Shown here piece after piece: positions 8,325 to 35,997 of a stretch of DNA of 37,879 nt. The stretch's first letter is position 1. Every line of letters starts with the position of its first letter. The position numbers were made by a program, and so were the translations under genes. The notes below the pieces were generated by a model. The model was not told where the DNA came from, did not search any database, and saw only the letters and a list, made by a program, of their open reading frames with translations. The stretch covers positions 1-37,879 of the forward strand of contig JAFGDV010000023.1 of assembly GCA_016931955.1 (NCBI GenBank). The letters run 5' to 3'. Source of the stretch: Candidatus Altarchaeota archaeon. GTDB taxonomy: Archaea > Altiarchaeota > Altiarchaeia > IMC4 > QMZM01.

Positions 8325-8627
8325 ATGGAACAAACAGAAGACTTGGCAGCCGAAATCAGCAGACACCACAACGAAATAAAAGCATACGGTGTCAAAAAAA
8401 TAGGAGTCTTCGGATCATACGCCAGAGGACAACAAAAGAAGAGAAGCGACGTTGACGTATTAGTGGAGTTCCGGAAAGGCCAGAAGACATTCGATAACTA
8501 CATGGACCTAAAAATCCTCCTGGAAAAAAAACTCAAAAAGAAAGTCGACCTAGTCATCAAAGAAGCATTAACCCCCCCACTCAAAAAACACATACTCGCC
8601 GAGGTAAAATATGCACAGAAACCATAA
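8325..8627 (+). CDS. mntA: MntA-type nucleotidyltransferase antitoxin
   Basis: A 100-residue minimal nucleotidyltransferase. The signature GSx10DxD is complete: Gly30-Ser31, then Asp42-Val-Asp44, with a third acidic residue at Asp75 (KKVDLVI). In characterised pairs MntA adds AMP groups to a tyrosine of the HEPN toxin HepT and so silences it; the intact active site supports that role here. The gene overlaps the hepT start by 17 bases. Confidence 0.9.
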   Translation: MEQTEDLAAEISRHHNEIKAYGVKKIGVFGSYARGQQKKRSDVDVLVEFRKGQKTFDNYMDLKILLEKKLKKKVDLVIKEALTPPLKKHILAEVKYAQKP

Positions 8628-8940
8628 ACTACTCTTAGACGACATCCTAGAGGCTGCAGACCGCATACAAGAATACACCAAAAATCTGACGCTCGCAGAC
8701 TTCAAGAAAAACAAACTCAAAGTCGACGCCACACTACGAAACCTAGAAGTCATAGGAGAAGCAACAAAAAACATCCCAGAAGAAGTCAAAAAGAAGAACC
8801 CTCAAATAGAATGGAAAAAGATGGCAGGATTACGAGACATACTCATACACGCCTACCCCAACATCGACATAGAGACCATATGGGACATAATAGAAAACAA
8901 GATACCAGAACTCAAAAAACAGATCAAGGAAATAAGATAA
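8611..8940 (+). CDS. hepT: HepT-type HEPN RNase toxin (DUF86)
   Basis: A 109-residue helical HEPN protein. The toxin motif Rx4HxY is complete as Arg75-Asp-Ile-Leu-Ile-His80-Ala-Tyr82. The Tyr is the residue that MntA-type partners adenylylate. The conserved NLEVIGEATKNIP helix (44-56) is typical of DUF86. It should be an RNase held inactive by the partner encoded just upstream. Nothing suggests decay. Confidence 0.9.
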   Translation: MHRNHKLLLDDILEAADRIQEYTKNLTLADFKKNKLKVDATLRNLEVIGEATKNIPEEVKKKNPQIEWKKMAGLRDILIHAYPNIDIETIWDIIENKIPELKKQIKEIR

Positions 8941-9029
8941 CCTATGAGAGGCAGAAGAGTTCGTTCTAAAAAAATTAGAACATTTATTCTAAAAAATAGA
9001 ACACAAGACAGGAAATAAAGGCGGCATAA

Positions 9030-9128
9030 ATGTAAGAGCCCGCTTCTGGGACACGCTTAAACGAGAAGTCTTCGAGCATGTTCTTTGTTTTTCATGGGGA
9101 TATATTGGGTTTAGTGATTTATAAAGTA
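9030..9128. repeat. Dispersed intergenic repeat, most complete copy
   Basis: This copy links both parts of the repeat: TAAGAGCCCGCTTCTGGGAC on the left and GAGCATGTTCTTTGTTTTTC, then ATGGGGATATATTGGGTTTAG and TGATTTATAAAG, on the right. The TTTATAAA box faces the RelBE-like pair. On the minus strand the middle part opens with ATG-AAA-AAC-AAA-GAA-CAT-GCT, a short conserved start that soon stops. Confidence 0.6.
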
Positions 9129-9189
9129 TGGTTTCCTAAAAGATTTAAGCATGAAAACCCTAAGATACAACACAGGAGGATGCGCGAAC

Positions 9190-9393
9190 ATGACTGAATC
9201 AATGATCAACATACCCAAAAAAGAATACCTACTCCTACTAAAATACAAAAAACTAGTGGACGCCGAATTCAAGGAAAAATTCACCAAAAAATTCCTCGAA
9301 GACGTCAGAAAAAGCGAGGAAGCCCATAAAAAAGGAGAATACGCCAGATGCGAGAGCAAAGAGGAAAGAAAAAAACTGTTCGACTCTCTGTGA
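9190..9393 (+). CDS. RelB-like antitoxin
   Basis: A 67-residue charged, helical protein. I choose the ATG at 9190, eleven bases after a GGAGG (9175-9179), rather than the first in-frame ATG at 9151. The N-terminal INIPKKEYLLLLKYKKLVDAE and the C-terminal segment (Lys-Lys-Gly-Glu, then SKEERKKLFDSL) match small archaeal antitoxins that pair with RelE toxins. The toxin gene starts five bases after its stop. Confidence 0.75.
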   Translation: MTESMINIPKKEYLLLLKYKKLVDAEFKEKFTKKFLEDVRKSEEAHKKGEYARCESKEERKKLFDSL

Positions 9394-9398
9394 TATCC

Positions 9399-9659
9399 AT
9401 GGCCTACAAACAGGACTATACAAAGCCGTTTCTTCAAGACGTTAAAGACATAAAAAAAGACAAAAACCTGTTAAACAGACTCAACAGAAAAATTGATGAA
9501 ATCCTAGAAAACCCAGAACACTACAAGCCATTAAAGAAAGACCTGAAAGGAAAAAGAAGAACCCACATCGGATCATACGTCCTAATATTCGAAGTCCGAG
9601 AAGACACCATCATATTCCACACATTCAAACACCACGACTACGCCTACCAGATAAGATAA
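9399..9659 (+). CDS. RelE/ParE-family toxin
   Basis: An 86-residue protein of RelE fold: FLQDVKDIKKDKNLLNRL forms the first helices, then the strands HYKPLKKDLKGKRRTHI, GSYVLIFEV and DTIIFHTFKHHDYAY. The Leu-Lys-Gly...Arg...Gly-x-Tyr-x-x-x-x-x-Glu pattern is the family signature. The gene lies five bases after a RelB-like antitoxin. The ATG at 9399 (MAYKQDY) is chosen because upstream codons overlap the antitoxin gene. It probably cleaves mRNA at ribosomes; the catalytic set in this family is variable. Confidence 0.82.
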   Translation: MAYKQDYTKPFLQDVKDIKKDKNLLNRLNRKIDEILENPEHYKPLKKDLKGKRRTHIGSYVLIFEVREDTIIFHTFKHHDYAYQIR

Positions 9660-10495: not shown

Positions 10496-10529
10496 ATTTT
10501 TATTCTTGTCTGATGTAGAATACTGTAAC
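10496..10529 (+). promoter_or_regulatory. Shared promoter leader, copy 1
   Basis: TTTTTATTCTTGTCTGATGTAGAATACTGTAAC-ATG is nearly the same as the bases before the second Cys-repeat gene at 11758-11794. The T-rich TTTTTATT works as a TATA-like box about 27 bases before the start, so the transcript is probably leaderless. Confidence 0.55.
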
Positions 10530-11747
10530 ATGAAAAAGATGATGATAACATGCTTGACATTGATCCTGCTAACAAACGGATGCCTGCAAACAGACCCCGC
10601 ACTCTGCGAACATATCGCAGACCAAAACAAAAAAGACACATGCTACAACTCACTAGCCATAAACAAAGAAGACTCCCTCTTCTGCGAAAAAATCCAAGAC
10701 CAAAAAACCAAAGAAAAATGCCACAACGACATAGCAAGATATGGAGAAATAACCCTCTGCGAACAAATAACAGATTCACAACAAAAAGACACATGCTATA
10801 ACTCACTAGCCATAAACAAACAAGACCCCCTCTTCTGCGAAAAAATACAGGGCACACAACAAAAAGACGAATGCTACGAATGGATTAGCCAAATAAGAGA
10901 AGACCCCACATTATGCGGAAAAATACAAGACCAGACCACAAAAGACAGCTGCCACACTACAATAGCACAATACACAAAAGACCCCCTAATATGCGAACAA
11001 ATAACAGACCAAGACACCAAAGACAACTGCTACGAAAACATTTTTTCAAACAACAACGACCCCGCAATCTGCGGACGGATTACGGACTCACCACAAAAAA
11101 ACGAATGCTACCTAAAAACAGCCCACAACAACAAAGACGCCACATTATGCGAACAAATCACAGACCAAAACACCAAAAACAGATGCTACTGGACAACAGC
11201 CCTAAACAAAGAAGACTCCACATTATGCGAACAGATTACGGATCCACAACAAGAATATCAATGCTATGATCTGATTGCTAAATCGAGAGGAGATCCCTCA
11301 ATCTGCGAAAAAATCAGAGACCAAAGCACCAAAGACGACTGCTATTTCAGCGCCGCAATATACAAAAACCCCCTCTTCTGCGAAAAAATCCCAAACAAAA
11401 TAAAAAAAGAATACTGTTACACCATGGTCGCCATATACTCAAACAACCCCCTAATATGCGAACAAATCCAGGATCAACAAAAAAAAGGATACTGCCACCA
11501 GAGTATTCTACTTTATAATACAGGCCCAGCATATTGCGAAAAAATCAGAGACCAAAGCACCAGAGACAACTGCTATCTGTCAACAGCCTACGACAGAAAA
11601 GACCCCACAATATGCGAACAAATACAGGACACACAACAAGAATACCAATGCTATGATTTCATTGCTCAATCAAAAGGAGATCCATCAATCTGCGAACACA
11701 TCAGAGACCAAGACACCAGAGAAGTATGCAAAAAATTCATACAATAA
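10530..11747 (+). CDS. Envelope lipoprotein of fifteen 26-residue two-Cys repeats
   Basis: From the ATG at 10530 the protein has 405 residues. A short signal peptide MKKMMITCLTLILLTNGC ends in a lipobox-like Thr-Asn-Gly-Cys, so it should be a secreted lipoprotein. The rest is about fifteen tandem repeats of 26 residues with consensus DPxLCEKIxDQxTKDxCYxx and then a short helical Ile-Ala-x-x-x-Lys. Each repeat has Cys at positions 5 and 17. The spacing suggests a helical solenoid with one disulphide per repeat, folded outside the cell. The last repeat is cut short. I know similar repeats from other uncultivated archaea, but not a function. An upstream ATG at 10506 would add eight residues but lies inside the promoter leader. 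Confidence 0.82.
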   Translation: MKKMMITCLTLILLTNGCLQTDPALCEHIADQNKKDTCYNSLAINKEDSLFCEKIQDQKTKEKCHNDIARYGEITLCEQITDSQQKDTCYNSLAINKQDPLFCEKIQGTQQKDECYEWISQIREDPTLCGKIQDQTTKDSCHTTIAQYTKDPLICEQITDQDTKDNCYENIFSNNNDPAICGRITDSPQKNECYLKTAHNNKDATLCEQITDQNTKNRCYWTTALNKEDSTLCEQITDPQQEYQCYDLIAKSRGDPSICEKIRDQSTKDDCYFSAAIYKNPLFCEKIPNKIKKEYCYTMVAIYSNNPLICEQIQDQQKKGYCHQSILLYNTGPAYCEKIRDQSTRDNCYLSTAYDRKDPTICEQIQDTQQEYQCYDFIAQSKGDPSICEHIRDQDTREVCKKFIQ

Positions 11748-11757
11748 CACAGTTCTG

Positions 11758-11794
11758 GCTTTTTATTTTCTTGTTTCACGTAGAATAGTGTAAC
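11758..11794 (+). promoter_or_regulatory. Shared promoter leader, copy 2
   Basis: TTTTTATTTTCTTGTTTCACGTAGAATAGTGTAACATG repeats the leader of the previous gene with few changes. It is a TATA-like T-rich box plus about 25 bases to the start codon. The conserved GTAGAATA-n-n-GTAAC could be an initiator or a regulator site shared by the pair. Confidence 0.55.
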
Positions 11795-12832
11795 ATGAAG
11801 AAGATCCTGTTCTCAATAGTTTTGCTCAGCGAAACAGCAACGGCATCATCCAGTGGTCTTCTCATCCGGCTAATCCAGGCACTATACTATCCAGTGTTTT
11901 TCCTAGCAACGCTCATGTACCTATACTGTATCATAGAATACCTGAAAGAAAGAAAAGACAAAAAATACCTGAAACACATAATAATCACCACCATAATAGC
12001 AGCAGCCAGCATAGCAGCCATAAACCTGATAAGCTGGGCCACATATGGATGCGTAATGATGCCCTACGCAGTCAGCGAAAACCTAGACTGCTGGGGTGCA
12101 GGATGCTTCGAACAAGAATGCCACTACAATCTGGCAATTAAAAAACAAGACCCCCTATTATGCGAACAGATCACAGACCAAGAAATCAAAGAAAGCTGCT
12201 ACACTATAGTCGCCATATACAAAGAAGACCTCGACCTCTGCGAAAAAATACAGAACACAGGGCATAGAGAACACTGTTTGATGGAAACAGCCATAAAATC
12301 GGGAAATGCCACAGTCTGCGAAAAATGCCCATATAGAGAATCCAGAGACCTATGCTATACCGCGATAGGAATAGACAAACAAGACCTCACCATATGCGAC
12401 CGAATCCAACACGATTTTGAAAAAATACTCTGCTACCAAAATATTGCAGTTTCCTCATCAAACCCTTTAATATGCGAACACTTCACTCAACCAGAATTTT
12501 GTTATACAAATATTGCAGCAGGAACAAAAAACGAATCAATCTGTGAAAAAATCACAGATCAACAGAAAAAAGAATACTGCTACGAGTCAGTAGCCTCAAA
12601 CAAACAAGACCCTGCATTATGTGAAAAAATCACAGACCAACACGCTAGAGATCGATGCTATGATTCCATAGCCTTAAACAAAAAAGACCCCACATTCTGT
12701 GAACAAATCACAAACCAGACCATCAAGGACAGTTGCTATAATTACATCGCAATAAACAAAAAAGACCCCACTCTCTGCGAACAAATCACAGACCAGGATA
12801 TAAAAGACATATGCACAAACTACACGTCATAA
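11795..12832 (+). CDS. Membrane-anchored protein with about ten 26-residue two-Cys repeats
   Basis: A 345-residue protein. The N terminus begins MKKILFSIVLLSETATA, then come two more hydrophobic stretches (about YYPVFFLATLMYLYCIIEYL and IIITTIIAAASIAAINLI) separated by a basic loop, so it is membrane-anchored. From about residue 90 the C-terminal part holds ten 26-residue repeats of the same kind as the preceding gene (DPxLCEQITDQxxKDxCYxx), with a degenerate first and a shortened sixth unit. The two genes are probably duplicates of one repeat block on different anchors: a lipid in the first, membrane helices in the second. Function unknown; envelope location is inferred. Confidence 0.8.
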   Translation: MKKILFSIVLLSETATASSSGLLIRLIQALYYPVFFLATLMYLYCIIEYLKERKDKKYLKHIIITTIIAAASIAAINLISWATYGCVMMPYAVSENLDCWGAGCFEQECHYNLAIKKQDPLLCEQITDQEIKESCYTIVAIYKEDLDLCEKIQNTGHREHCLMETAIKSGNATVCEKCPYRESRDLCYTAIGIDKQDLTICDRIQHDFEKILCYQNIAVSSSNPLICEHFTQPEFCYTNIAAGTKNESICEKITDQQKKEYCYESVASNKQDPALCEKITDQHARDRCYDSIALNKKDPTFCEQITNQTIKDSCYNYIAINKKDPTLCEQITDQDIKDICTNYTS

Positions 12833-14120: not shown

Positions 14121-14681
14121 TTATCGGCGTACAACCTTAAGAAGATCAGCGTTCGTGATAATGCCTTTGATGTCGCCCCCCTCCATGACAAGGATTGCTG
14201 TATTGTGTTCCAGGAGCTTGGAGAGTGTTGTCAATGATGTGGTGTTGTTCACGATGGGGAATGGGTGTTCCATGAAGTCTGCGACGTTTCTGTGGGAGAA
14301 GTCTTTCATGTTCGCTCCCTTCCCTATTTCGTTGAGTATTCTCTTCTCTGAGATGGAACCTGCGACCTTTTTTTTGTTGAATACTGGAATCTGTGATACC
14401 TTGAATCTGCTCATGATCCTTACGGTGTCTTCCATGGAGTCTGTTAATTGGACGCCGACGACCTTTGATGTCATCAGTTCTTTAGCGGTTATCTCTCTTT
14501 TCTTTAGCTCGTCCAGTGCCTTGCAGATGCGCTCCACCTTTGAGTATCTTGGGTCAACGGTTCCGGCTTCGAGTCTTGCGATGAGTGACTGGCTTACGCT
14601 GGCCTTCTCAGCCAGCTCGGACTGCGTTATACCTAAATCCTTGCGCAGCCGTTTTATCTCCGTTAGACCTAAGAGCCTCAT
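14121..14681 (-). CDS. HTH (XRE) regulator with paired CBS domains
   Basis: A 186-residue protein. The N-terminal helix-turn-helix (residues 5-60) reads LGITQSELAEKASVSQSLIA; two CBS domains follow (about 66-122 and 128-186). CBS pairs usually bind adenine nucleotides or S-adenosylmethionine, so this is a metabolite-sensing DNA-binding protein. Its start codon lies two bases from an 18-base imperfect palindrome and faces the homocysteine operon, which also carries CBS domains. Control of itself, leuC and the homocysteine genes in response to an adenosyl ligand is a fair inference. Confidence 0.85.
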   Translation of the reverse strand: MRLLGLTEIKRLRKDLGITQSELAEKASVSQSLIARLEAGTVDPRYSKVERICKALDELKKREITAKELMTSKVVGVQLTDSMEDTVRIMSRFKVSQIPVFNKKKVAGSISEKRILNEIGKGANMKDFSHRNVADFMEHPFPIVNNTTSLTTLSKLLEHNTAILVMEGGDIKGIITNADLLKVVRR

Positions 14682-14682
14682 T

Positions 14683-14700
14683 TTATGCGTATATGCATAA
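14683..14700. promoter_or_regulatory. Palindromic operator between regulator and homocysteine operon
   Basis: TTATGCGTATATGCATAA is palindromic at 16 of 18 positions, with perfect six-base arms TTATGC and GCATAA. It sits two bases before the regulator's ATG and about 50 bases before the DUF39 start. A TATA-like TATTTATATATG (about 14715-14726) stands between it and the DUF39 start, at leaderless spacing. It is probably bound by the HTH-CBS protein. Confidence 0.6.
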
Positions 14701-14749
14701 TCTTAGGTATTTGATATTTATATATGAATATTCAATAACTAAGACATTC

Positions 14750-16261
14750 ATGAAAACTATAAAGCAGATAAACGAAAAAATACGGAAAGGCGAAGCGGTA
14801 GTCGTCAGGGCTGATGAGATGCCCGAGATCTATGAAGAAAACCCAAGAAAGGCAGCCAAAGAAGTGGACGTAGTCACCACAGGCACATTTGGTGTAATGT
14901 GCTCTTCAGGGGCATTCCTCAACTTCGGCCACTCTGATCCACCTATAAAGATGCAGAAGGTCTGGTTGAATGAGGTGGAGGCCTACACTGGAATCGCGGC
15001 AGTGGATGCGTATATAGGCGCCACAGAACTCAGCATGGACAAAGGCCTAGAATACGGCGGAGGCCACGTTATCGAAGACCTGGTGTCCAGAAAAGAGGTA
15101 GACCTCAGGGCGACATCATATGGCTCCGATTGTTATCCCCGGAAAAAGATCGAAACAACCCTGACAATAGATGATCTGAGCCAGGCAGTGATGGTCAACC
15201 CAAGAAACTGCTATCAAAGATACAAGGCCGCAATAAATTCCACGAACACCATACTCCACACATACATGGGCACGCTGCTCCCCGACAAGAGGAATGTCAA
15301 CTTTGCAGGCACTGGCGAGATAAGTCCTCTGGCGAATGACCCTAACCTGGAAGTAGTCGGCGTCGGAACAAGGATATTCCTATGCGGGGCCCAAGGCATC
15401 ATACTAGGGGAAGGAACCCAGAGCTCTCCCCCGACCGGTTATGCGACCATACGCACTCAAGGAAACCTGAAGGAGATGTCTAAGGAGTTCCTAGCCGGTG
15501 CGTCGATTCTGGGGTATGGAGCGTCGCTCTTTATTGGCATTGGAATACCGATACCGATCCTGGATGAGCGAATAGCCCGGAATACTGCCGTAAGAAACGA
15601 GGACATAAGGGTGGACGTGCTGGACTTTGGTGTCCCCAAGAGGGACAGGCCCGTAGTAGGCCAGGTAAGCTATGCTGAGCTATTCTCCGGTAGGATTGAG
15701 ATAGACGGTAAAAAAGTTAAGACGAGCCCGTTGTCGAGCCTTAAGAAATCCCTCGAGATAATGGACACACTAAAGGGGTGGATTCAGGGTAAGGAGTTCT
15801 TCCTTTCAGAGACGATCCAGCCCCTGCCGAAGGACTCCATCTCTAAGCCGATGAAGCAGAGGAAGATGGTGCCTTTTGTTGGAGAAATCATGACCAAGAG
15901 GGTGATAACAGCTCATCCGGAAGACTCTATTGACTCCGTAGCAGAAACCCTCGTCAGGAAGGAGATAGATCAGATTCCTATAGTGGACGCAGAGAGAAAA
16001 CTTGTTGGGATAGTGACCTCCTGGGACATAACAAAGGCGGTTGCACTGAAAAAGAAGAAGCTGGGGGATATAATGACGAGGAACGTGATAAACTCAAGGC
16101 AGGATGAATACATAGATGCTGTCAGCCGCAGGTTTGAGAAATACAAGATACACTCCACTCCAGTAGTCAACGACAAAAAGGAGCTGGTAGGCATAATCAC
16201 GATGGCTGACATACTACACAGCGGCGTCACTAACAAGCTTCGTAGCAAGACGAAAAAATGA
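14750..16261 (+). CDS. Homocysteine biosynthesis protein, DUF39 plus CBS pair
   Basis: Taking the ATG at 14750, about 28 bases after a TATA-like box, gives 503 residues. The long DUF39 (COG1900) domain fills residues 1-370. It contains conserved Cys51 in FGVMCSSGAFLNFG and Cys128 in YGSDCYPRKK, and Gly-rich stretches such as YIGATELS. Two CBS domains follow from about 379 to the end. In Methanosarcina the homologue MA1821, acting with the NIL-ferredoxin MA1822, makes homocysteine from aspartate semialdehyde and sulfide. The stop overlaps the next gene (ATGA). The CBS pair may sense an adenosyl ligand and tune the reaction. An upstream extension to 14585 runs through the regulator on the other strand and is not credible. 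Confidence 0.9.
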   Translation: MKTIKQINEKIRKGEAVVVRADEMPEIYEENPRKAAKEVDVVTTGTFGVMCSSGAFLNFGHSDPPIKMQKVWLNEVEAYTGIAAVDAYIGATELSMDKGLEYGGGHVIEDLVSRKEVDLRATSYGSDCYPRKKIETTLTIDDLSQAVMVNPRNCYQRYKAAINSTNTILHTYMGTLLPDKRNVNFAGTGEISPLANDPNLEVVGVGTRIFLCGAQGIILGEGTQSSPPTGYATIRTQGNLKEMSKEFLAGASILGYGASLFIGIGIPIPILDERIARNTAVRNEDIRVDVLDFGVPKRDRPVVGQVSYAELFSGRIEIDGKKVKTSPLSSLKKSLEIMDTLKGWIQGKEFFLSETIQPLPKDSISKPMKQRKMVPFVGEIMTKRVITAHPEDSIDSVAETLVRKEIDQIPIVDAERKLVGIVTSWDITKAVALKKKKLGDIMTRNVINSRQDEYIDAVSRRFEKYKIHSTPVVNDKKELVGIITMADILHSGVTNKLRSKTKK

Positions 16262-16656
16262 ACAAATACATGCTGAAGATACCCTCGGAGGTTGTTGATT
16301 CACCCATAATCGCAACCACTGTCTTGGAGACAGAAGTGATGGTCAACATACTGAGGGCGAAGGTGGACTATGACGAGGGCACGATTGTGATAAGCATACT
16401 CGGAGACGCCGAGGAACAGAGGAGGGTCGTGGAAGCGCTCAGGGGGAAGGGGGTGGAGGTAAGTAAGCTCGAGAAAAATATAACAAACGACTTGAAGAAA
16501 TGCGTCAACTGCGGTGCTTGCATAGCTTTATGCCCTACTGACGCGATCTCATTCAACGCAGACCATTCTATCAGGGTGGAAAGTGAAAAATGCATCCGTT
16601 GCGGAGCGTGTGTGGTAGCATGTCCCCTCAGAAGCCTATCTATCCAGGTGATCTGA
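16258..16656 (+). CDS. NIL-domain ferredoxin of homocysteine biosynthesis
   Basis: A 132-residue protein with an N-terminal NIL domain (about 3-75), as found in methionine-uptake ATPases, and a two-cluster ferredoxin. The clusters are bound by Cys82, 85, 88, 92 (CVNCGACIALCP) and Cys112, 115, 118, 122 (CIRCGACVVACP). All eight ligands are present. It is the partner of the DUF39 protein in homocysteine formation (MA1822-type) and probably supplies electrons for sulfur reduction. The genes overlap by four bases, which implies coupled translation. Confidence 0.9.
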   Translation: MNKYMLKIPSEVVDSPIIATTVLETEVMVNILRAKVDYDEGTIVISILGDAEEQRRVVEALRGKGVEVSKLEKNITNDLKKCVNCGACIALCPTDAISFNADHSIRVESEKCIRCGACVVACPLRSLSIQVI

Positions 16657-17336
16657 AAAGATTCGAGCTCAGTTATAAGCAGACTAGCGTTGTTGTTTTC
16701 TCGGATCTTGACATAGCATCGGAAGTCTTGGAATTCCTCGAGGGGAGGTATGATGAGCTTGAAGCCTACTGCCTGAAGGAGCCTCTTTTCCTACTATCGT
16801 ATGACCCCGTGGGGTCGAGAAAGAAATCACCAACCATCGTTGAAATGATGGCAGCCGCCGCAGAAAAAGCCGAGGTTGGCCCAATGGCCGCAGTTGCTGG
16901 TGCTTTCTCTGAGCTAGTTGGCGGGTTCCTGCTGGAAAAGGGGGCGAGGGAGGTATTGGTCGAAAACGGCGGCGACATCTTCATGAAGTCTGAGAGGGAT
17001 AGGATTGTTGGAGTATACGCTGGGGATTCGGTTTTTTCTAATAGGATCGGCTTCAGGGTGAGGCCGGAGCAGACGCCCATGGCAGTCTGCACCAGCTCTT
17101 CCTCAGTCGGTCATTCTGTAAGTCTCGGTGACTCTGACGCGGTTTCCGTTGTTGCGGAATCCTGCCCTCTAGCGGATGCTGCTGCTACGTCCATTGGAAA
17201 TCATGTTAGGGGTGATGAGGGGATAAGCCTTGGGCTGAAGAGGGCGCAGGGGATAAAGGGGATCAAGGGGACGCTCATAATCCAGGGGGGGGAGATGGGT
17301 TTCTGGGGGGAACTGCCTGAGATAGTACCACTATAA
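16620..17336 (+). CDS. UPF0280 (COG2122) protein, sulfide assimilation
   Basis: Starting at the ATG at 16620 (MSPQKPIYPGDLKRFEL) gives 238 residues and a 37-base overlap with the ferredoxin gene. UPF0280 proteins resemble the FAD-transferase ApbE fold. Visible motifs are VGPMAAVAGAFSELVG, VLVENGGDIFM and SCPLADAAATSIGNHV. The homologue MA1715 of Methanosarcina acetivorans was reported to be needed for efficient sulfide use in homocysteine synthesis. The three proteins therefore form a complete set in one operon here, whereas MA1715 lies apart from MA1821-1822 in Methanosarcina. An upstream ATG at 16590 is possible but would overlap more. Confidence 0.85.
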   Translation: MSPQKPIYPGDLKRFELSYKQTSVVVFSDLDIASEVLEFLEGRYDELEAYCLKEPLFLLSYDPVGSRKKSPTIVEMMAAAAEKAEVGPMAAVAGAFSELVGGFLLEKGAREVLVENGGDIFMKSERDRIVGVYAGDSVFSNRIGFRVRPEQTPMAVCTSSSSVGHSVSLGDSDAVSVVAESCPLADAAATSIGNHVRGDEGISLGLKRAQGIKGIKGTLIIQGGEMGFWGELPEIVPL

Positions 17337-28500: not shown

Positions 28501-29588
28501 TGCGTATGTCGTTTGACCCAAACTATGATAACTGGCATGTTAAACCCCATAATGTCTACTTGAGCGTTAACGGGCACTCGGTTGGCTCCATAATCAACAG
28601 GATTCCTGAAGATAGTTATTCCTTCTCCTTTAGTCCGGAGCTTCTGCACTATTCTGAGAGCGGCGTCGGACGTAACGTTATCAGTCTGCGCTCAACTCAT
28701 CCTCCAGGCCATTACTCCGTCTATTACGGCGTTGGAGTATGTACTTGTCTGGATGAGTATTCTGGCTATGTTGTCGCCACTAGTTCGGAGGAGGCCAGCG
28801 AGTTGTTGTGGAGTTTAAGTTTCCTATTCAAGAGTTCATCGTTTATCGACTTTGAGTTGTTGTCTCCTCTTCTTGGTGAAGAGTTGGTCGCCGGCAGGCC
28901 TACTGTGGTGAGGGCGCGGGTTATCGATGATGGTTCAGGCGGCACCTACCCTGTGAATGCTTCTTTTTCAGGCGGCAAGGTTGTCTGGTTGTTTGATGAC
29001 GGAAAGCATGGCGACGAGGTTGCTGGGGATGGGGTCTACACCAACTATGTGGTTCCTCCTATGGCTCATACAGGCAGCCTTAATCTCTACTCCGAGAACT
29101 GTGTTACATCTGCCTTGTTTGAATTGGATTTCAACATATCCTTGCTTCCTGACTTGGCGGTTTCCTCTGCAGGCATATCCTTCTCTAATCCTTCTCCTGC
29201 AGTCAATGAATCCATAACAGTTGATGCTAGAGTCCACAACATCGGATACGATAATATCTCGGATGTCCGGGTTCAGTTGTTCGTTGGCTCTGATACGTTA
29301 TCTGAGCAGGTTTTTCCGTTTTTGCCGGTTGGCAGCCACGTTTCTGTTTCAGCGAACTGGACTGCTTCAGCAGGCGACCATCTTTTCTCTGTTTTCGCGG
29401 ATCCCTACGACGCCATCCCTGAAGTGTATGAGACCAATAATTTTGCCTCTAGGCTGCTTTCCGTAGGCGGCGGAGGTGGGGGTGGCGGAGGAGGTAATGG
29501 GACAGGTAATGAGACAGCAGGTGATCTTCCCGACCTGGCCGTCTACGGCCACGAGATCATTTTCATGAAGATTGGGGGTGGCGGATGA
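25542..29588 (+). CDS. Giant surface protein: DUF2341, lectin-like, CARDB
   Basis: A 1,348-residue secreted protein. Signal peptide about 1-24. DUF2341 (about 25-115) shows DLSDYQVLVNLSGDDFP and DIRFYDMYGLMLPYWIE. A jelly-roll domain (about 125-325) and an L-type lectin-like domain (about 330-525; GDGMVFMFYKDRNYVPG) follow. Then come several beta-sandwiches, including an Fn3-like one near 640-730. A region at about 1105-1200 shows DDGKHGDEVAGDGVYTNYVV, a pattern common before surface anchors. CARDB begins at about 1203 (LPDLAVSSAGISF). The end is odd: a Gly run (about 1310), then the opening of a second CARDB (LPDLAVYGHEIIF), then the stop. It overlaps the toxin-type gene by four bases, suggesting joint production. 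Codon choice is strongly T-ending. Confidence 0.8.
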   Translation: MNLKQRILAVLVFFILCSGLTVADYGRILSVQENSGRDLSDYQVLVNLSGDDFPVESAAGGSDIRFYDMYGLMLPYWIESFDPSSPEALIWVRVPFIPANETAALLVSWGEPSLPAVSNASAVFECFDDFESGSLGNWQVVAASWSIINESGNLVIRGSGGSNTHHGLAWKGFVPLAPGIEVKARVKNIDPYSSSPGRVDPGIYWGYTSLAGSALPGYAANSDNRYHRLRVVRSTGSETILDSQYISSMSSSKYYTYILRVQDDGSLSGMILDGDSVIYSTNAVDLTYVSSANHPGLFADFDGKAGYWDDFVVRKYTYPEPNVSISELPVPRLFGFSDNFSSDSGMWTYVGSAYRDATNEYVVLTTNGGGQVGVVWLKENISSNFSVDFRYLITYCGFYRGDGMVFMFYKDRNYVPGSGGALGFIGSPSVVPGYGVEFQTWLSNHVSLIKDSVDNHLKSVGGSCYCDGVWHNVSVRVNDSGVSVFRDGAFLLSWSGTMNRSFGGFGFSAATGMAVEYHIIDDFRITAGHSPSPPEPGPAFNFSISDNQTTSVGGDAVYALTLSNPNMFPLILNLSVSGLDAGWFTLSDESVLLVAGETRDVLLYVSVPEDCGAAGVRLFSVSAGGKSVDSVLFVDSAPIISDLIPHNYSTLSSNDVLFSWKTSVNSSTELFLKEESEPDFSSLVGVNGLDHVVLASNLTRNMLYSWYVRSYSVCGCSNSSERVFYVDNGVVFTQDDYFFNVERDYNQYVILSVRNLDSESHTLLVQAMNPYDDLIVGFVGNGSLDQNLGLDPGESADMHFMVHAQDAMLEDYSLLVNLTNLGVENISDYAVVHVHVRRPNINFTLTELSVNPVTLAKTYKITNYGDPITDLKVSADDSLSAGLLFNPVINHGNLRSGNSVEFEAIPVLFENFTGIVGEIRVQGLDSVVVGGANFTLPPGKQVYLGKVYNPQLCIQLEDWYCSNRPNVDIYFDIPAGYFADNSQSGTLRMSFDPNYDNWHVKPHNVYLSVNGHSVGSIINRIPEDSYSFSFSPELLHYSESGVGRNVISLRSTHPPGHYSVYYGVGVCTCLDEYSGYVVATSSEEASELLWSLSFLFKSSSFIDFELLSPLLGEELVAGRPTVVRARVIDDGSGGTYPVNASFSGGKVVWLFDDGKHGDEVAGDGVYTNYVVPPMAHTGSLNLYSENCVTSALFELDFNISLLPDLAVSSAGISFSNPSPAVNESITVDARVHNIGYDNISDVRVQLFVGSDTLSEQVFPFLPVGSHVSVSANWTASAGDHLFSVFADPYDAIPEVYETNNFASRLLSVGGGGGGGGGGNGTGNETAGDLPDLAVYGHEIIFMKIGGGG

Positions 29589-32500
29589 TGGATCATAGAA
29601 CCTCTCTCTTGGTCGTCTTTGTTGTTCTGTTGTCGACTTTAGGCGCTGCTGCCGGCTTCGATGTCTCCGTTGTCCCGAAGAAGGAGGAGGTGTCGGTTGG
29701 TGAAGTGGTTGACGTCGTCGTGGAACTCTCGAGTAAAGACTTTGAAGGCAACCTCTCTCTTTCAGTAGTTCTTGATAAAGAGGGGATTGATCTTTCCTGG
29801 TTTAATTGGTCTTCTCTTAATGTTTCCCTTTCTTTGGGTGAAGTGAGGGTTATCCCCTTGCGGGTCAATGTTCCCTTCATCACTTCTTCTGGGAATAAGA
29901 AGTTTGTCGTGGAAGCTGTATCCTCTGACAAGTCCTCATCCGGTAAGTGTATGTTTAAGGTCTTTGATTCTTCGCCGAGTGTTTTTCTGTCTTCTCCAGT
30001 GAATGACTCCTTCGTTGAAGACATTGTTGGAGTGGATGGCTTTGTTTCTGGCACTGATGTCCTGGTTTCTTTGTCTGTGGATTCTTCCTTTGTCTCCAGT
30101 TCTTTGCCTTATCTCTGGAATACGTCAGAATACCTGGATGGAGGGCATGTTTTGTCTTTGACCGCTTCCAGTAAAAAGGATTCTAATTCATCGTCCGTGT
30201 TTGTGGAAGTGGATAATACCTGGCCTTCTGTTTTGTTCTATTCTCCCTTGAATGGTTCCTGTGTTGCGGGTTTGGTTGAAGTGGATGGTTCTTTCTCTGA
30301 TTTGTATCTTGATTCCACGAACTTGAGCATCGACGGCGTGGTCGTCTCCGATGTTTTGCCTTATACTTGGGATACTTCCATTTACTCTGATGGCTGGCAT
30401 ATCCTTTCTCTGTCAGCCTCTGACTTCATAGGTCATCAGTCATCTGTGAGTAATCATCTTTACGTTGACAACACGCCTCTTAGTCTCTCCGTCTTTGAGC
30501 TTACCGTGAATCCTACTTTGGAGGATCCTGAGTACACCCTCTTGGGTGTGGTGAACAAGAATGCCTCTGTCTACGTTAACGGCGTCCCTGTTTCTTTGGT
30601 GAATCTTTCTTTCATGCGCTCTCTTACCTTGCATGAGGGCCTTAACTCTGTAGAAGTCGTTGCCCTGGATTGCGTGGGTAGGAATGTTTCTTGGACTCAG
30701 TCTCGTGCCTTGGACGGCGACCGTCTTCCTGATTGGTATGAGTTGTCTGTTCTTGGAACTGATCCATTGGATGGTGACTCAGATGATAACAACATCTCGG
30801 ATGGTTTTGAGGATTTTGACTCTGATTGGGTTTTGAACTATTTTGAGTTTCTTTTCTTGACTGATCCCTTCAGTAATGACACCGACGGTGATTCTTTGTC
30901 TGACTTCTTCGAGCTCCAGTACCTGGGTTCTTCTCCTCTTCTTTTTGACTCTAATGGCGACGGCTTTTCTGATGGTGTGGACGACCCCGACGGCGATTCT
31001 TTGTCTAATCTGGAGGAGCAGTCTGCCGGCAGTCATCCTTGGCATAATGACTCCGACTTCGATGGTCTTTTGGATCCTGAGGAAATAGTTTTTGGCTCTG
31101 ATCCTATGTGGTTTGACTCCGACGGTGATTTTCTCAGGGATTGGAGTGAGCGTAACTTGGGAACTGATCCCTTGAATAATGACAGTGACTTTGATGGTGT
31201 CTTGGATGGTTTGGAGCTTTATTCTCTTAAATTCTTGAGCAATGATAGCCTGGCTTCTGCCGTTGTCACCGGAGTCGGCGACTTCACTGGCTTGGTTTCT
31301 GTGGAATATTTTTCTGAGAATCCCCTCTTCGCCTATGGTAGTCTTCCGGGTTTTGTTTCTGCCGCCGAATTCAGGTCAGCCAGAAATTTTTCGTCTGCCA
31401 TGATCAGGCTTTATTATCCTTCCTCCGTCAACGAATCTAACTTGTCTTTGTTTTACTGGGATCCAATTGACCTGGAATTCATTGAAGTCGCCAACCAGAC
31501 TTGGAACCCAGATGAAGACTACATCGAAGCCGAAGTAAGCCATTTTTCATTTTATTATCTGTTTGATTCGGGCAGGGTGTTTCGTTCTTGGGATAGTATC
31601 TTGTTTGACCTTGGTGATGTTGTCCGTATTTCTGTTCCCGTCTATAATTCAGGTAATGATTCTGCTTTTGATGTTCGTGTTGGCTTGTTTGTGGGTGATC
31701 CTTTTGATGGTGGTTTTTTGGTGGATGAGGATGTTATTTCTTATATTGCTCAGGATTCCTATGAGGTGGCTTCTTTTTCTTATACGTTGTCTGATGACTT
31801 GGAGTTGTGGGTTGTTGCTGACTTTGATGAAGCCATTAATGAGTCTAATGAGGCGAATAATGACGCTTTTGTTGTGTATTCTACGAAGGATTCTGATGGG
31901 GATGGTTTGTCTGATTGGGAGGAAGTCTACGGTACTAGGTTGACTTATCCTTGGTTGCTTGTCTCTCATCCTGATCCTTGGTCTGTTCCTGATTTTAAGG
32001 GTTATGGTCTGCCTAATGTTGACTCTGACTGGGATGGTGTCCCTAATTTCTTGGATAATGATTCGGATAATGATGGTCTTTTTGACTGGGAGGAGGTCAC
32101 TGGGGTGGAATTGTTGGGCGGCAGACGCTACCACACATACATCTCCGATCCCTACAGCCCGGACACAGACAGAGACGGATTGACCGACAAAGAAGAAGTC
32201 GACGGCTGGTATGTGAAGGTTATAGATACTAAAGAAGAAGCTATAGCCTGTTATATGGCGTTTTTGGATGCTGAGAATAGGGGAGAAGAACCTACGTCGG
32301 TGGATATTACGGAATACATTGAGGAGTATGCTGTGGTTTCTAATCCTCAGGTTAATGATTCTGATCTTGATGGTGTTTTGGATTCTGAAGAGCGTTGGGC
32401 TGGTTTAGATCCTAATAAGGGTGACACGGATGGAGATTATATCCCTGATCTGGTTGAGTTGCATGGTCCCTACTTGGATGCTGATTTTTTTGATATAACT

Positions 32501-34576
32501 GGCCCTAAGTTTTCGCTTATCGATACTGAAGAACTTGGTTATCTTAAGTTCAGGTTGACTTATCGTGTCTATGACGAGGCTGGTTTGAGCGAGGTTGCAT
32601 TGAGGAAGGACGCACCTTTTGATGTTATAGAAGAACCTCAAGTCTTACCTCCTGGTAATCCAACTGAACATAATTTTTATTTTACTATATCTGCTTTGGA
32701 TGCTGTGACGGGTTTTAATGTTGTCATGAATGGTTCTGATATTCACGACAATTTTGATTCGCATGTTATAAATTGGGATGGATTGTTTGTGGAGACTGCT
32801 AAGGGAGCATCTGAATGGTATATCTTGCATTATAAGGATAGTATGAATCCTTTTGCTGGTGGGGCTTTATGTGGTATGTTTTATGGTATAGGAGGTACTG
32901 CGCAGGATATCACAAGTATTGCTGCGGAGATTGCTGATGATCCCTCTACGTTCATAACTATTATTCAGGATACGGGGGAGAGTTTTGACGAGCATGGGAT
33001 TTCTTTTCCGCAGAAGGTTTTGGATGCAATGGGTGCTCAGGTTGAAGTGTATCAGAAAGATGTGAATCCGTTTGGTAATGGTTCTGTGGAGTATGATGAG
33101 TTTAGGACTGGTTTTTATTGGGGTTATGCTGGTGGTGTTGGTGTCACTTTTCTTGTGCCTGTGGCGGGTGTTGCTAAGGCTCCTCCGCAGATAGCTAAGT
33201 ATTTGAATGTGTTGTCTGGTGCGAAGCTGGTTAGGAATATTGCTTTTATCTCTAGTAGTGGGGCTGTTGTTGGTTATGTGTTGACTGAGGTTTTCCCGGA
33301 TAGTGAACTTATCAGGGATATTTATCATACTACTCTGGGTGTTGCTGTTTTCGCCGATACTGCTTGGATTCTTCATGGAGCTGGGGTGAATGTTGTTAAG
33401 CTTAAGAATTATGCTGTTAATAGTTGCAAGTTGAGTATTAGGTTTGGTAGGGCTAAGTTGGCTCAGTTTACCAGCAAACTTACTTCTGTTTGGGGGTCCA
33501 CTAAGACTGAGAGCTTTGTCAGTAAGTTGCCTTCGACTGTTCAGGATGATCTTTTCTTGGTTTATGAGTCTAATCCTGCAGTTGTCAATGAGGTGTATTT
33601 GACGAATCTTGACTCTAAGGTCACGGTTTTGTTGGATGAGGGTTGGTTTGGCGTTGATGCTTTGGAGGCTTCTACTGTTCGGGAGGTTGGTCTTACGTCT
33701 GTTGTGGCTGTCAACTATGCACCTGTTGAGTTTGTAGGGTTTACTGCTGCCGAGTTTGACAGTGTTTTGTTGTTGGAGGAGGGTATTCCTGGGAGCGTGT
33801 CTGCGTTGTCGTCTAGCAGCGAGTTGTCTGGAGTCAATAAGCTGGTTAAAGTCGCCGAAATTAATCGTCGGGTGCCGGGCAGTGGTCAGAGTATTGGGGG
33901 AATAATGGATAAGGCGGGTGCGTCTGAGTCTGTGGATGCTTTGTATGCGGCTCGGCGTCCTTATCTTGGTAAGGGTATTCGTGAAGTCATTGAGAGAGAG
34001 AAGACTTTGTTGAAGGTTAATGGTTTATCGGCGAATGCGCCTCAGGCTCAGGAATGTTTGGAGTATTTGGGTAAAATAGAGAGGAATGCTAATAATATTC
34101 GTGCCGCAGGTTTTGATCCGGGTGAGGTGTCGAAGTGGGCGAAGGGGCGCATAGAAGTGGATGGAGTAGGTAAACCAGTCAAGACAGCGGCAACATCCAA
34201 TAACGTAGGCAACCTTGAAGGCGACCTGTTCGAACTGGAAACCTCATACAAGAAACCAACATCTAGGGGCGCGGGAGTAAAAGATATGGGCAAAACAATA
34301 CGCAACAGCGCAGGCAGCACCGACGCGGATGTTAGATACCTTAACGGAGACATACGAGAAAGCAAAAACATAGACTGGAGTAAGGTTAAACCAGGAACAG
34401 ATGAGTATACGGACCTTACTAATAATTTACAGCATAAGTTGAATGTTTTCAAAGTGTATAAAAGTAGCAATCCTTCAGCAGAAATTAGATTTAGTTTTAA
34501 AGGTGATTTGAGCGACGTGGAGAGCGGAATCAGAACATGGCTTGAGGGAGAGGGATATATCGTGGAGGGTATTTGA
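29585..34576 (+). CDS. Giant secreted polymorphic-toxin-like protein with nuclease tip
   Basis: A 1,663-residue protein. Signal peptide (about 1-24), Ig-like repeats (about 25-370), then a first block of Asp-rich calcium-binding thrombospondin-3-like repeats (about 376-550; NDSDFDGVLD). Next come an extended beta region, a CARDB-like domain (about 670-765) and a second Asp-rich block (768-960). Residues 1177-1240 hold a Gly-rich hydrophobic stretch (YWGYAGGVGVTFLVPVAGVA), as in toxins that cross membranes. A pre-toxin module (1396-1500) follows. The tip (1520-1663) has Glu1545/1550, Asp1582 and Glu1592-x-Lys1594 in DADVRYLNGDIRESKN, a PD-(D/E)XK-like nuclease site. Its codon use switches from T-ending to A/C-ending at the tip, as expected if the tip was swapped in. 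Confidence 0.72.
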   Translation: MMDHRTSLLVVFVVLLSTLGAAAGFDVSVVPKKEEVSVGEVVDVVVELSSKDFEGNLSLSVVLDKEGIDLSWFNWSSLNVSLSLGEVRVIPLRVNVPFITSSGNKKFVVEAVSSDKSSSGKCMFKVFDSSPSVFLSSPVNDSFVEDIVGVDGFVSGTDVLVSLSVDSSFVSSSLPYLWNTSEYLDGGHVLSLTASSKKDSNSSSVFVEVDNTWPSVLFYSPLNGSCVAGLVEVDGSFSDLYLDSTNLSIDGVVVSDVLPYTWDTSIYSDGWHILSLSASDFIGHQSSVSNHLYVDNTPLSLSVFELTVNPTLEDPEYTLLGVVNKNASVYVNGVPVSLVNLSFMRSLTLHEGLNSVEVVALDCVGRNVSWTQSRALDGDRLPDWYELSVLGTDPLDGDSDDNNISDGFEDFDSDWVLNYFEFLFLTDPFSNDTDGDSLSDFFELQYLGSSPLLFDSNGDGFSDGVDDPDGDSLSNLEEQSAGSHPWHNDSDFDGLLDPEEIVFGSDPMWFDSDGDFLRDWSERNLGTDPLNNDSDFDGVLDGLELYSLKFLSNDSLASAVVTGVGDFTGLVSVEYFSENPLFAYGSLPGFVSAAEFRSARNFSSAMIRLYYPSSVNESNLSLFYWDPIDLEFIEVANQTWNPDEDYIEAEVSHFSFYYLFDSGRVFRSWDSILFDLGDVVRISVPVYNSGNDSAFDVRVGLFVGDPFDGGFLVDEDVISYIAQDSYEVASFSYTLSDDLELWVVADFDEAINESNEANNDAFVVYSTKDSDGDGLSDWEEVYGTRLTYPWLLVSHPDPWSVPDFKGYGLPNVDSDWDGVPNFLDNDSDNDGLFDWEEVTGVELLGGRRYHTYISDPYSPDTDRDGLTDKEEVDGWYVKVIDTKEEAIACYMAFLDAENRGEEPTSVDITEYIEEYAVVSNPQVNDSDLDGVLDSEERWAGLDPNKGDTDGDYIPDLVELHGPYLDADFFDITGPKFSLIDTEELGYLKFRLTYRVYDEAGLSEVALRKDAPFDVIEEPQVLPPGNPTEHNFYFTISALDAVTGFNVVMNGSDIHDNFDSHVINWDGLFVETAKGASEWYILHYKDSMNPFAGGALCGMFYGIGGTAQDITSIAAEIADDPSTFITIIQDTGESFDEHGISFPQKVLDAMGAQVEVYQKDVNPFGNGSVEYDEFRTGFYWGYAGGVGVTFLVPVAGVAKAPPQIAKYLNVLSGAKLVRNIAFISSSGAVVGYVLTEVFPDSELIRDIYHTTLGVAVFADTAWILHGAGVNVVKLKNYAVNSCKLSIRFGRAKLAQFTSKLTSVWGSTKTESFVSKLPSTVQDDLFLVYESNPAVVNEVYLTNLDSKVTVLLDEGWFGVDALEASTVREVGLTSVVAVNYAPVEFVGFTAAEFDSVLLLEEGIPGSVSALSSSSELSGVNKLVKVAEINRRVPGSGQSIGGIMDKAGASESVDALYAARRPYLGKGIREVIEREKTLLKVNGLSANAPQAQECLEYLGKIERNANNIRAAGFDPGEVSKWAKGRIEVDGVGKPVKTAATSNNVGNLEGDLFELETSYKKPTSRGAGVKDMGKTIRNSAGSTDADVRYLNGDIRESKNIDWSKVKPGTDEYTDLTNNLQHKLNVFKVYKSSNPSAEIRFSFKGDLSDVESGIRTWLEGEGYIVEGI
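33772..34086. repeat. Pre-toxin module, copy 1 (direct repeat with 35221-35531)
   Basis: DNA for the module GSVSALSSSSELSGV to INRRVPGSGQSIGGIMDKAG is nearly identical to 35221-35400, with a stretch of almost unbroken identity from TTAATCGTCGGGTGCCGGGC through ATGGATAAGGCGGGTGC. Similarity continues more loosely to a shared LEYLGKxER. After this point the two genes are unrelated. It marks the junction for tip exchange. Confidence 0.75.
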
Positions 34577-34579
34577 ACT

Positions 34580-35134
34580 ATGGGCGGAAGCTTTTTTATA
34601 AAAAATTATAGGGAAGTAGCTTTTTTCAAGTCCGATATTTGTGCGAAAATAGTATCCCAATTCATTGACTTGGGGGCCATATACAAGCCAGAATTTGGTT
34701 ATTGGAGTGAAACAAAAGGCAAAGTTAGTAAGGCAACTTTAAAAGAAGCCACCAATGACGTAAGCACACAAGGGGGCTCAATACATTTTTTTTACAAAGA
34801 CATAGACTTCAGCCTAAGTTTACATTTTAAGGGTTTCATCAACCTCAAGAAGTATGGCATAGTCAGTTTGTTCATTGATCGTTGTTTTTTTAATTGGGAG
34901 ACCCTTGATTTGCTTGAGAACTATGAAATCTTCACCAGATTTGCTGAGGAGGCTTACAAGCTGATCGATCCAGTATTCTGTTGCGCCTACTACAACCAAT
35001 ACGACAAGACGGTGGATGATGCTTTCCTTGATGAGGCGCGTAAGAAGAGGAGGACTTGGGAAGAACTGAAAGAGGAACTGGAAAAGGCAATCGAATTAGA
35101 CTTGAAGTTGAAAGACCTTAAGCCGAGTAAATAA
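34580..35134 (+). CDS. Candidate immunity protein 1
   Basis: A 184-residue protein starting three bases after the giant gene's stop. It has no signal peptide, so it stays in the cytosol, as an immunity protein must. It is not recognised: an alpha/beta front part (FFIKNYREVAFFKSDIC, IDFSLSLHFKGFINLKK), a patch with Cys-Cys (VFCCAYYNQYDKT) and a highly charged helical tail (RRTWEELKEELEKAIELDLK). Position directly after a toxin tip, size and location suggest that it neutralises the nuclease tip. There is no sequence proof. Confidence 0.6.
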   Translation: MGGSFFIKNYREVAFFKSDICAKIVSQFIDLGAIYKPEFGYWSETKGKVSKATLKEATNDVSTQGGSIHFFYKDIDFSLSLHFKGFINLKKYGIVSLFIDRCFFNWETLDLLENYEIFTRFAEEAYKLIDPVFCCAYYNQYDKTVDDAFLDEARKKRRTWEELKEELEKAIELDLKLKDLKPSK

Positions 35135-35136
35135 AA

Positions 35137-35991
35137 GTGGCGAAAGCTAAGTATCATGTTTGGTTGACGTTACTGTTCTGCTTATTAGTCTTATCCAGTC
35201 CAGTTTCTTCTACTAACTCCTTGGAGGAGGGTGTTACTGGTTCGGTGTCTGCGTTGTCGTCTAGCAGTGAGCTTTCGGGTGTCAGTAATCTGGTTAAAGC
35301 CGCCGAAATTAATCGTCGGGTGCCGGGCAGTGGTCAGAGTATTGGGGGAATAATGGATAAGGCGGGTGCTGGTCGTAGCTTGGATTTGTTGTATAGTGCC
35401 CAACGAAGTGATTTGTTGGCGGGTGAGTTGGCGGTTGTTCGCAGTGGTCGCACTATTCCTGAAGTCGCAGGTGGACTGTCTCCAGCTAAGACTGAGGAGG
35501 TGTTGGAGTATTTGGGGAAACTGGAGAGACGATACGGCAGCAGTGCAATAGAAGGGAAGAATACTTTGATCTGGGCTGTGGAAGATGAAGGAGGTGTTTC
35601 AACCATAAAAAACACCAAAATAAAGGGCACGACACTGGTAGTGGAAGGAGATAACTATTATGGGTATACGCACTACTGGAAAAAACATGTTACAGGCACA
35701 ATCCCCAACGGAGACTTGTTCAAAGACATGTTCCCCGAAATAGCCGGCAACGAAGAAGCTTTTCTTAGAGAATGGGTACCTAAAACAATAAAGAACGGAG
35801 ATGTAGTAGCCCTTAGTAGCAGTAGGTTTGGGTATGTTATTGAGCCTTTTGAAGATGGGAGAAAAATGTTGGTAGTAGTTGAATACAACTTTGATGTTAA
35901 AATTGGCATTGACTTTACTCAAAGTAGTGGTTCTACTCAAAGTAGGCTAATAACCACTTACCCCTGTATAACTAAACCAAATTGTTTTTGA
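35137..35991 (+). CDS. Short secreted toxin cassette with RNase-like tip
   Basis: A 284-residue protein starting at a GTG two bases after the previous stop. Signal peptide (about 1-25, VWLTLLFCLLVLSSPVSS), then the same pre-toxin module as the giant protein (31-80, VTGSVSALSSSSELSG, RRVPGSGQSIGGIMDKAGA), and a shared LEYLGKLERR (123-132). The tip (140-284) is unrelated to the giant tip. It has YGYTHYWKKHV (His179 and His184), then an Ile-Lys-Asn-Gly-Asp strand, and ends LITTYP. This layout resembles barnase/EndoU-like (BECR) RNase toxins. It looks like an orphan cassette: a signal, a module and a spare tip without the long stalk. A standalone secreted toxin is the other reading. Confidence 0.65.
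   Translation: MAKAKYHVWLTLLFCLLVLSSPVSSTNSLEEGVTGSVSALSSSSELSGVSNLVKAAEINRRVPGSGQSIGGIMDKAGAGRSLDLLYSAQRSDLLAGELAVVRSGRTIPEVAGGLSPAKTEEVLEYLGKLERRYGSSAIEGKNTLIWAVEDEGGVSTIKNTKIKGTTLVVEGDNYYGYTHYWKKHVTGTIPNGDLFKDMFPEIAGNEEAFLREWVPKTIKNGDVVALSSSRFGYVIEPFEDGRKMLVVVEYNFDVKIGIDFTQSSGSTQSRLITTYPCITKPNCF
35221..35531. repeat. Pre-toxin module, copy 2
   Basis: Second copy of the module at 33772-34086. The two copies could recombine so that the stalk gene takes over the second tip and its neighbour immunity gene; the deletion would remove the first tip and its immunity gene. Confidence 0.75.
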
Positions 35992-35997
35992 TTTAAA

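What the first reader, a model, noticed from the sequence alone, without database searches (positions are those of the whole stretch)
10496..12832. Pair of 26-residue two-Cys repeat proteins with a duplicated leader
Two neighbouring genes share the repeat and about 35 bases of promoter, but have different anchors (lipobox versus three hydrophobic segments). Fifteen and ten repeats each carry Cys at positions 5 and 17. One disulphide per repeat in a solenoid would be a stable extracellular rod. No function is known to me.
Basis: partly seen in the sequence, partly recalled or inferred. Interest (0 to 1): 0.65.

Follow-up and report, generated by a model that had tools for sequence, protein, structure and literature searches.

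The report
Disulphide-clasped helical surface repeat proteins
Two neighbouring genes of an Altiarchaeota archaeon encode membrane-anchored surface proteins built from 9 to 15 short helix-pair repeats, each probably clasped by one disulphide bond; they belong to a large, apparently undescribed repeat family of Altiarchaeota, tiny symbiont-like archaea (DPANN) and tiny symbiont-like bacteria (CPR).

Summary
Gene A (10530-11747) has a lipobox-like leader and 15 repeats. Gene B (11795-12832) has three hydrophobic helices and 9 regular repeats plus one degenerate repeat. Repeats are 26 residues with Cys at 5 and 17. The duplicated leader is real (37/44 bases). AlphaFold2 predicts a helix-pair solenoid with high confidence (pLDDT 95): a 6-residue plus a 15-residue helix per repeat. 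No solved structure, Pfam, NCBIfam or PHROG family matches.

The pair belongs to a family found across Altiarchaeota (about 13 genes in this genome), DPANN archaea (100 of 148 sampled genomes of one phylum) and Patescibacteria (19 of 192), and absent from 152 genomes of a control archaeal phylum. Nearly all members have a lipobox, signal peptide or membrane helix. Cys types alternate without exception (1,023 neighbour pairs); arrays begin with Cys5 and end with Cys17, which favours one disulphide within each repeat. Cys distances could not be measured, and this genome shows no DsbA, VKOR or thioredoxin, so the oxidation state is unproven.

Most likely function: extracellular, membrane-tethered binding scaffolds for contact with other cells or surfaces. 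This is inferred. I know of no earlier description, and found none in the searchable papers.

The parts
10497..10540 (+). Leader copy 1: T-rich TATA-like box, GTAGAATACTGTAAC, start codon and first codons of gene A
   Evidence: 37/44 identical to copy 2; core occurs only at the two genes plus one 2-mismatch site in the genome
10530..11747 (+). Gene A: 405-aa putative lipoprotein with 15 repeats
   Evidence: ORF and Cys spacing; no Pfam, NCBIfam, PHROG or PDB match
10530..10583 (+). Signal peptide and lipobox-like LTNGC of gene A (Cys18)
   Evidence: Sequence; hydrophobicity; the same kind of leader recurs in about 40 relatives
10593..11744 (+). Repeat array of gene A, residues 22-405, 15 helix-pair repeats with Cys5/Cys17
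   Evidence: Spacing; AlphaFold2 of six repeats (window 10824-11291): pLDDT 95, pTM 0.82, helices 2-7 and 11-25 of each repeat
11762..11805 (+). Leader copy 2 in front of gene B
11795..12832 (+). Gene B: 345-aa membrane protein with 9 regular repeats and one degenerate repeat
   Evidence: AlphaFold2 pLDDT 82.5 overall, 93-98 over most repeats
11798..12046 (+). Three hydrophobic helices of gene B (residues 2-14, 21-53, 56-84); the basic KERKDKKYLK loop between the second and third suggests that the repeats face outside
   Evidence: Hydrophobicity; predicted helices; orientation inferred from the positive-inside rule
12149..12829 (+). Regular repeats of gene B, residues 119-345; residues 97-118 are a degenerate repeat
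   Evidence: Cys spacing; helices; repeats of A and B match each other at 48-56% identity

Best explanation
Genes A and B are members of a multi-copy family of extracellular, membrane-tethered alpha-solenoid proteins. Each 26-residue repeat folds as a short helix (residues 2-7) and a long helix (residues 11-25); Cys5 and Cys17 lie on the inner faces and most likely form one disulphide per repeat, so the array is a helical rod or superhelix stiffened by one clasp per repeat. A is held by a lipid on its N-terminal Cys, B by three membrane helices. The outer face of the long helix (positions 12, 13, 16, 19, 20, 23, 24) is hypervariable, which is how repeat scaffolds present different binding surfaces. 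The most likely job is binding of partners (other cells, cell-surface polymers or proteins) at the surface of these archaea. Shown: repeat anatomy, relatives, N-terminal anchors, Cys alternation and array ends. Predicted: fold. Inferred: disulphide formation, orientation, binding function.
For: Predicted fold: pLDDT 95, pTM 0.82 for six repeats of A; same helix pattern in B, pLDDT 93-98 over most repeats. Disulphide pairing: 0 violations of 5-17 alternation among 1,023 adjacent typed Cys; the 17-to-5 gap is 14 in 476 of 510, while the 5-to-17 gap tolerates insertions up to about 30 residues. Arrays start with Cys5 in 75 of 79 and end with Cys17 in 75 of 79, with 3 more cut by contig or locus ends; pairing between repeats would leave two orphan Cys per protein. 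Both Cys sit in the hydrophobic stripe 4/5/8 and 17/18/21/22. Location: 40 lipobox and 42 hydrophobic N-termini out of 85 ORFs with complete N-termini; the 3 others are borderline, internal or mis-started. Several arrays sit on Thr-rich stalks, and some are fused to extracellular-type domains: arylsulfotransferase propeller (L032, L033), PKD-like (L022), MG2-like (L045), C39-like (L054). Distribution: 23 of 28 class-level relatives, 100 of 148 in a DPANN phylum, 19 of 192 Patescibacteria, 0 of 152 in a control archaeal phylum. Two other family genes in this genome lie beside type IV pilus-type genes: T2SSF pair in L025, class III signal pilin in L029.
Against: Cys-Cys distances were not measured. 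No VKOR, DsbA, Thioredoxin_4 or Thioredoxin was found in this 92%-complete genome, and only 1 of 13 genomes of its family has Thioredoxin_4, so oxidative folding has no known catalyst here. No partner, expression or binding data exist. Most of the other family genes in this genome stand among housekeeping genes, so neighbours say little about function. The alignment behind the model includes overlapping windows of the same proteins.
Confidence: 0.6

Rival explanations
1. The Cys bind metal ions or stay as thiols: the array is an extracellular metal-binding or redox-buffering strip in a reducing, sulphidic habitat.
For: No known disulphide-forming enzyme in the genome and almost none in its family.
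Against: Spacing 12/14 with no CxxC or His ligands at conserved positions; pairs kept strictly as 5-17 pairs from array start to array end; other lineages carrying the repeat do have DsbA-like proteins (family f5; CPR thiol-disulphide oxidoreductase with VKOR, PMC6744442).
Confidence: 0.15
2. Disulphides run between repeats (Cys17 of one with Cys5 of the next), stapling the solenoid along its axis.
For: The 17-to-5 spacing is the more rigid one (14 in 476 of 510), and both Cys face the core.
Against: Arrays start with Cys5 and end with Cys17 in nearly all proteins, which would leave two unpaired Cys each time.
Confidence: 0.12
3. Passive structural rods: spacer or stalk proteins of the cell envelope, without a specific partner.
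For: Regular rigid repeats, variable repeat number, simple anchors, Thr-rich stalks.
Against: About 13 strongly divergent paralogues in one genome, and hypervariable outer-face positions with an invariant core, look more like diverse binding surfaces than one material.
Confidence: 0.25

Closest known systems
Sel1-like / TPR-type alpha-solenoids, including the secreted disulphide-containing Helicobacter Hcp proteins (the latter from my own knowledge)
   Same: Tandem helix pairs; in Hcp, secreted with a disulphide in each repeat
   Different: Repeat 26 residues instead of 34-44; no Sel1 or TPR Pfam match at E<=0.1 in the repeat proteins scanned without other domains; no PDB structure at Foldseek E<=0.001; different consensus
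Leucine-rich variant (LRV) repeat
   Same: Similar short period (24 residues) with one short and one long helical element (own knowledge)
   Different: No LRV match in Pfam and not among the 50 best Foldseek matches; LRV is Leu-rich, without paired Cys in each repeat
Lineage-specific extracellular families of DPANN archaea (PMC8204110) and CPR (PMC6744442)
   Same: Unannotated, membrane-bound or extracellular families characteristic of symbiont-like lineages
   Different: Those papers do not describe this repeat in their main text; here the same repeat occurs in both domains

Membership tests
Sel1-like / TPR repeat proteins | Match to the family profile, repeat of 34-44 residues | tested here: not met
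   No profile match at E<=0.1; period 26
Sel1-like / TPR repeat proteins | Helix-turn-helix repeats stacked as a solenoid | tested here: met
   Predicted only: helices 2-7 and 11-25 in each repeat, pLDDT 95
LRV repeat | 24-residue Leu-rich repeat matching the LRV profile and structure | tested here: not met
   No Pfam match; not in the top Foldseek list
Cell-surface lipoproteins (gene A) | Signal peptide with lipobox ending in Cys | tested here: inconclusive
   LTNGC after a hydrophobic stretch; Thr and Asn at -3 and -2 are atypical; relatives have canonical lipoboxes
Disulphide-bonded secreted proteins | Exported and Cys paired | tested here: inconclusive
   Export supported, pairing pattern supported, oxidation untested and no oxidase found
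The C5/C17 26-residue repeat family defined here | Tandem 26-residue repeats [DN]xSIC[DE]KIxDxxx[KR]DxCYxx[IV]A behind an export signal | tested here: met

The most novel reading that the evidence does not exclude
A single disulphide-clasped surface repeat, shared and probably exchanged between Altiarchaeota, DPANN archaea and CPR bacteria, is a common recognition module by which these symbiosis-associated cells attach to or recognise partner cells.
Probability: 0.25. Interest if true: 0.78.

Novelty: new variant of a known kind. Interest (0 to 1): 0.58.

Why it matters
DPANN archaea and CPR bacteria are thought to live mostly attached to other cells, but most of their surface proteins have no known fold or function. 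Here is one sequence-defined, confidently predicted fold, present in two thirds of sampled genomes of a DPANN phylum and in CPR bacteria across the domain boundary, with many paralogues per genome and no profile in the libraries searched. It gives a concrete handle (pattern, fold, anchors, testable disulphides) for work on contact between these cells and their partners, and a very short natural helix-pair repeat of possible use in protein design.

Tried and rejected
Alignment queries for the search for related loci failed for lack of a conserved 7-10 column block; a degenerate DNA pattern worked instead. Viral contigs, phages and plasmids gave no relatives, so a mobile-element or phage tail role was dropped. 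I expected an LRV-like fold; Pfam and Foldseek do not support it. The weak Pfam, NCBIfam and PHROG matches are below curated cut-offs where those exist, mutually inconsistent, and were treated as composition noise. A first test of Cys loss within against between repeats was confounded by loop insertions and replaced by the typed alternation and end tests. Neighbour genes of the other family genes in this genome are mostly housekeeping; two pilus-type neighbourhoods are suggestive but not tested for enrichment. Some pattern hits (L064, L080) do not encode arrays and are chance; L063, binned as Mollicutes, repeats the proteins of L048 and looks like a misbinned contig.

Full report
What is there. 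Gene A (10530-11747, +, 405 aa) and gene B (11795-12832, +, 345 aa) follow each other. A starts MKKMMITCLTLILLTNGC, a signal peptide with a lipobox-like end, followed by 15 repeats. B starts with three hydrophobic stretches followed by a degenerate repeat and 9 clear ones. The start of A is the ATG at 10530, because the leader duplicated in front of B places B's ATG at the same point. The repeat consensus over 481 distinct repeats is [DN]-x-S-[IL]-C-[DE]-K-I-x-D-x-x-x-[KR]-D-x-C-Y-x-x-[IV]-A-x-x-K-x. The number of Cys-x11-Cys pairs exceeds all 5,000 shuffles in both proteins.

The duplicated leader. 10497-10540 and 11762-11805 agree at 37 of 44 bases. The block starts with a T-rich box about 33 bases before the ATG and runs through the start codon. 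By general knowledge of archaeal promoters this is a core promoter with a very short 5' leader; this is inference. The core sequence occurs nowhere else in the genome except at one site with two mismatches, so it is a local duplication of a gene front, not a regulon signal. The first residues of B (MKKILFSIVLL) look like a remnant of the same signal peptide.

Fold. AlphaFold2 on six repeats of A with 28 aligned rows gave pLDDT 95 and pTM 0.82, with a 6-residue helix at 2-7 and a 15-residue helix at 11-25 in each repeat. B gave the same pattern at pLDDT 93-98 over most repeats, with a low-confidence stretch around residues 210-225 where the alignment is poor, and helices 2-14, 21-53 and 56-84 in front. 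Foldseek found no solved structure at E<=0.001 for either model, only generic helix-repeat matches such as VPS35, alpha-SNAP, TPR and designed repeats, with TM-scores (by query length) below 0.45, and nothing significant among viral models. No Pfam, NCBIfam, PHROG or PDB sequence match is credible.

Disulphides. Over 79 arrays, every adjacent pair of typed Cys alternates 5-17-5-17 (1,023 pairs, no violation); the 17-to-5 gap is 14 in 93% while the 5-to-17 gap is 12 in 82% and accepts long insertions. Arrays begin with Cys5 in 75 of 79 and end with Cys17 in 75 of 79, and three of the other four are cut by contig or locus ends. Pairing within the repeat uses every Cys; pairing between repeats leaves two orphans in every protein. 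Both Cys lie in the hydrophobic stripes of their helices. The weak point is the enzyme: VKOR, DsbA, Thioredoxin_4 and Thioredoxin profiles find nothing in this genome, although related families and CPR bacteria do have DsbA-like proteins (PMC6744442).

Where the family lives. Contigs of relatives match public records of Altiarchaeota: G015 has the contig length of IMC4, G007 that of B80_G16 and G002 that of CSMAG_1619, so the window comes from an Altiarchaeota genome. 23 of 28 relatives within the class carry the repeat, and this genome has about 13 such genes. An exact pattern search of a collection of 84,980 species genomes hit Altiarchaeota, Pacearchaeota, Woesearchaeota, Micrarchaeota, Diapherotrites, Aenigmatarchaeota, Nanohaloarchaea and several Patescibacteria, and translation confirmed arrays in nearly all. 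In profile searches 100 of 148 genomes of the phylum of a Woesearchaeota record, 19 of 192 of the phylum of a Liptonbacteria record and 0 of 152 of a control archaeal phylum (unnamed, and with no positive control inside it) matched (Fisher p = 5e-43 and 1e-5 against the control, not corrected for phylogeny). Repeats of CPR and Diapherotrites are as alike across the domain boundary (44%) as within each group (43% and 48%), and share the AKQD end, which suggests transfer.

Location and architecture. Of 85 ORFs with complete N-termini, 40 have a lipobox and 42 another strong hydrophobic N-terminus; the other three are borderline, have an internal membrane segment, or were started too far upstream. 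No background rate was measured and the set includes a few spurious ORFs. Some members carry extra domains: arylsulfotransferase-like propellers (L032, L033), PKD-like (L022), MG2-like (L045), C39-like peptidase (L054), the last three below Pfam's curated cut-offs. Two other family genes of this genome lie next to pilus-type genes.

Function. The anatomy is that of a binding scaffold: invariant core, hypervariable outer face, variable repeat number, many diverged paralogues, surface anchors, and a distribution centred on lineages known or predicted to live attached to other cells. I commit to extracellular binding or adhesion as most likely, with a passive rod and a metal or thiol strip as rivals. 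No direct evidence of a ligand exists.

Novelty. The kind (alpha-solenoid) is known; this repeat, its length, its paired Cys and its distribution are not described in the libraries searched or in the papers I could search, which cover open-licence papers only.

Noticed in passing
window 29585-36537: A 1663-aa surface protein (29585-34576) and a 284-aa protein (35137-35991) share the stretch SVSALSSSSELSGV..LVK.AEINRRVPGSGQSIGGIMDKAGA before unrelated C-termini, each followed by a small gene (34580-35134, 35998-36537). This looks like a polymorphic-toxin locus with an orphan toxin module and immunity genes.
   Followed up: no
L032:4965-6659, L033:11003-12901 (one relative genome, G018): Arylsulfotransferase-like propellers (PF14269) with the Cys repeat array as a C-terminal tail, two copies in one genome.
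   Followed up: partly
L025:436-2348 and L029:2917-3372 (same genome as the window): Two family genes lie beside type IV pilus-type genes (two T2SSF proteins; a class III signal pilin).
   Followed up: partly
G000 (whole genome): No Thioredoxin, DsbA, Thioredoxin_4 or VKOR profile match in a 92%-complete genome; unusual for an organism that exports so many Cys-rich proteins.
   Followed up: partly
L048 and L063: A contig binned as Mollicutes carries the same two repeat proteins as a Paceibacterota contig; probably misbinned.
   Followed up: no
window 14585-17336: A CBS-domain protein, a ferredoxin-domain protein and an ApbE/UPF0280-like protein in a row, as in the archaeal homocysteine sulphuration genes (recognised from memory, not tested).
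   Followed up: no
window 8325-9659: MntA/HepT-like pair and a RelE-like gene: probable toxin-antitoxin modules upstream of the finding (recognised from memory, not tested).
   Followed up: no
L091 (G000:C2:22854-22873): Third copy of the GAATAxTGTAACATGAA leader core with two mismatches; the gene behind it was not examined.
   Followed up: no
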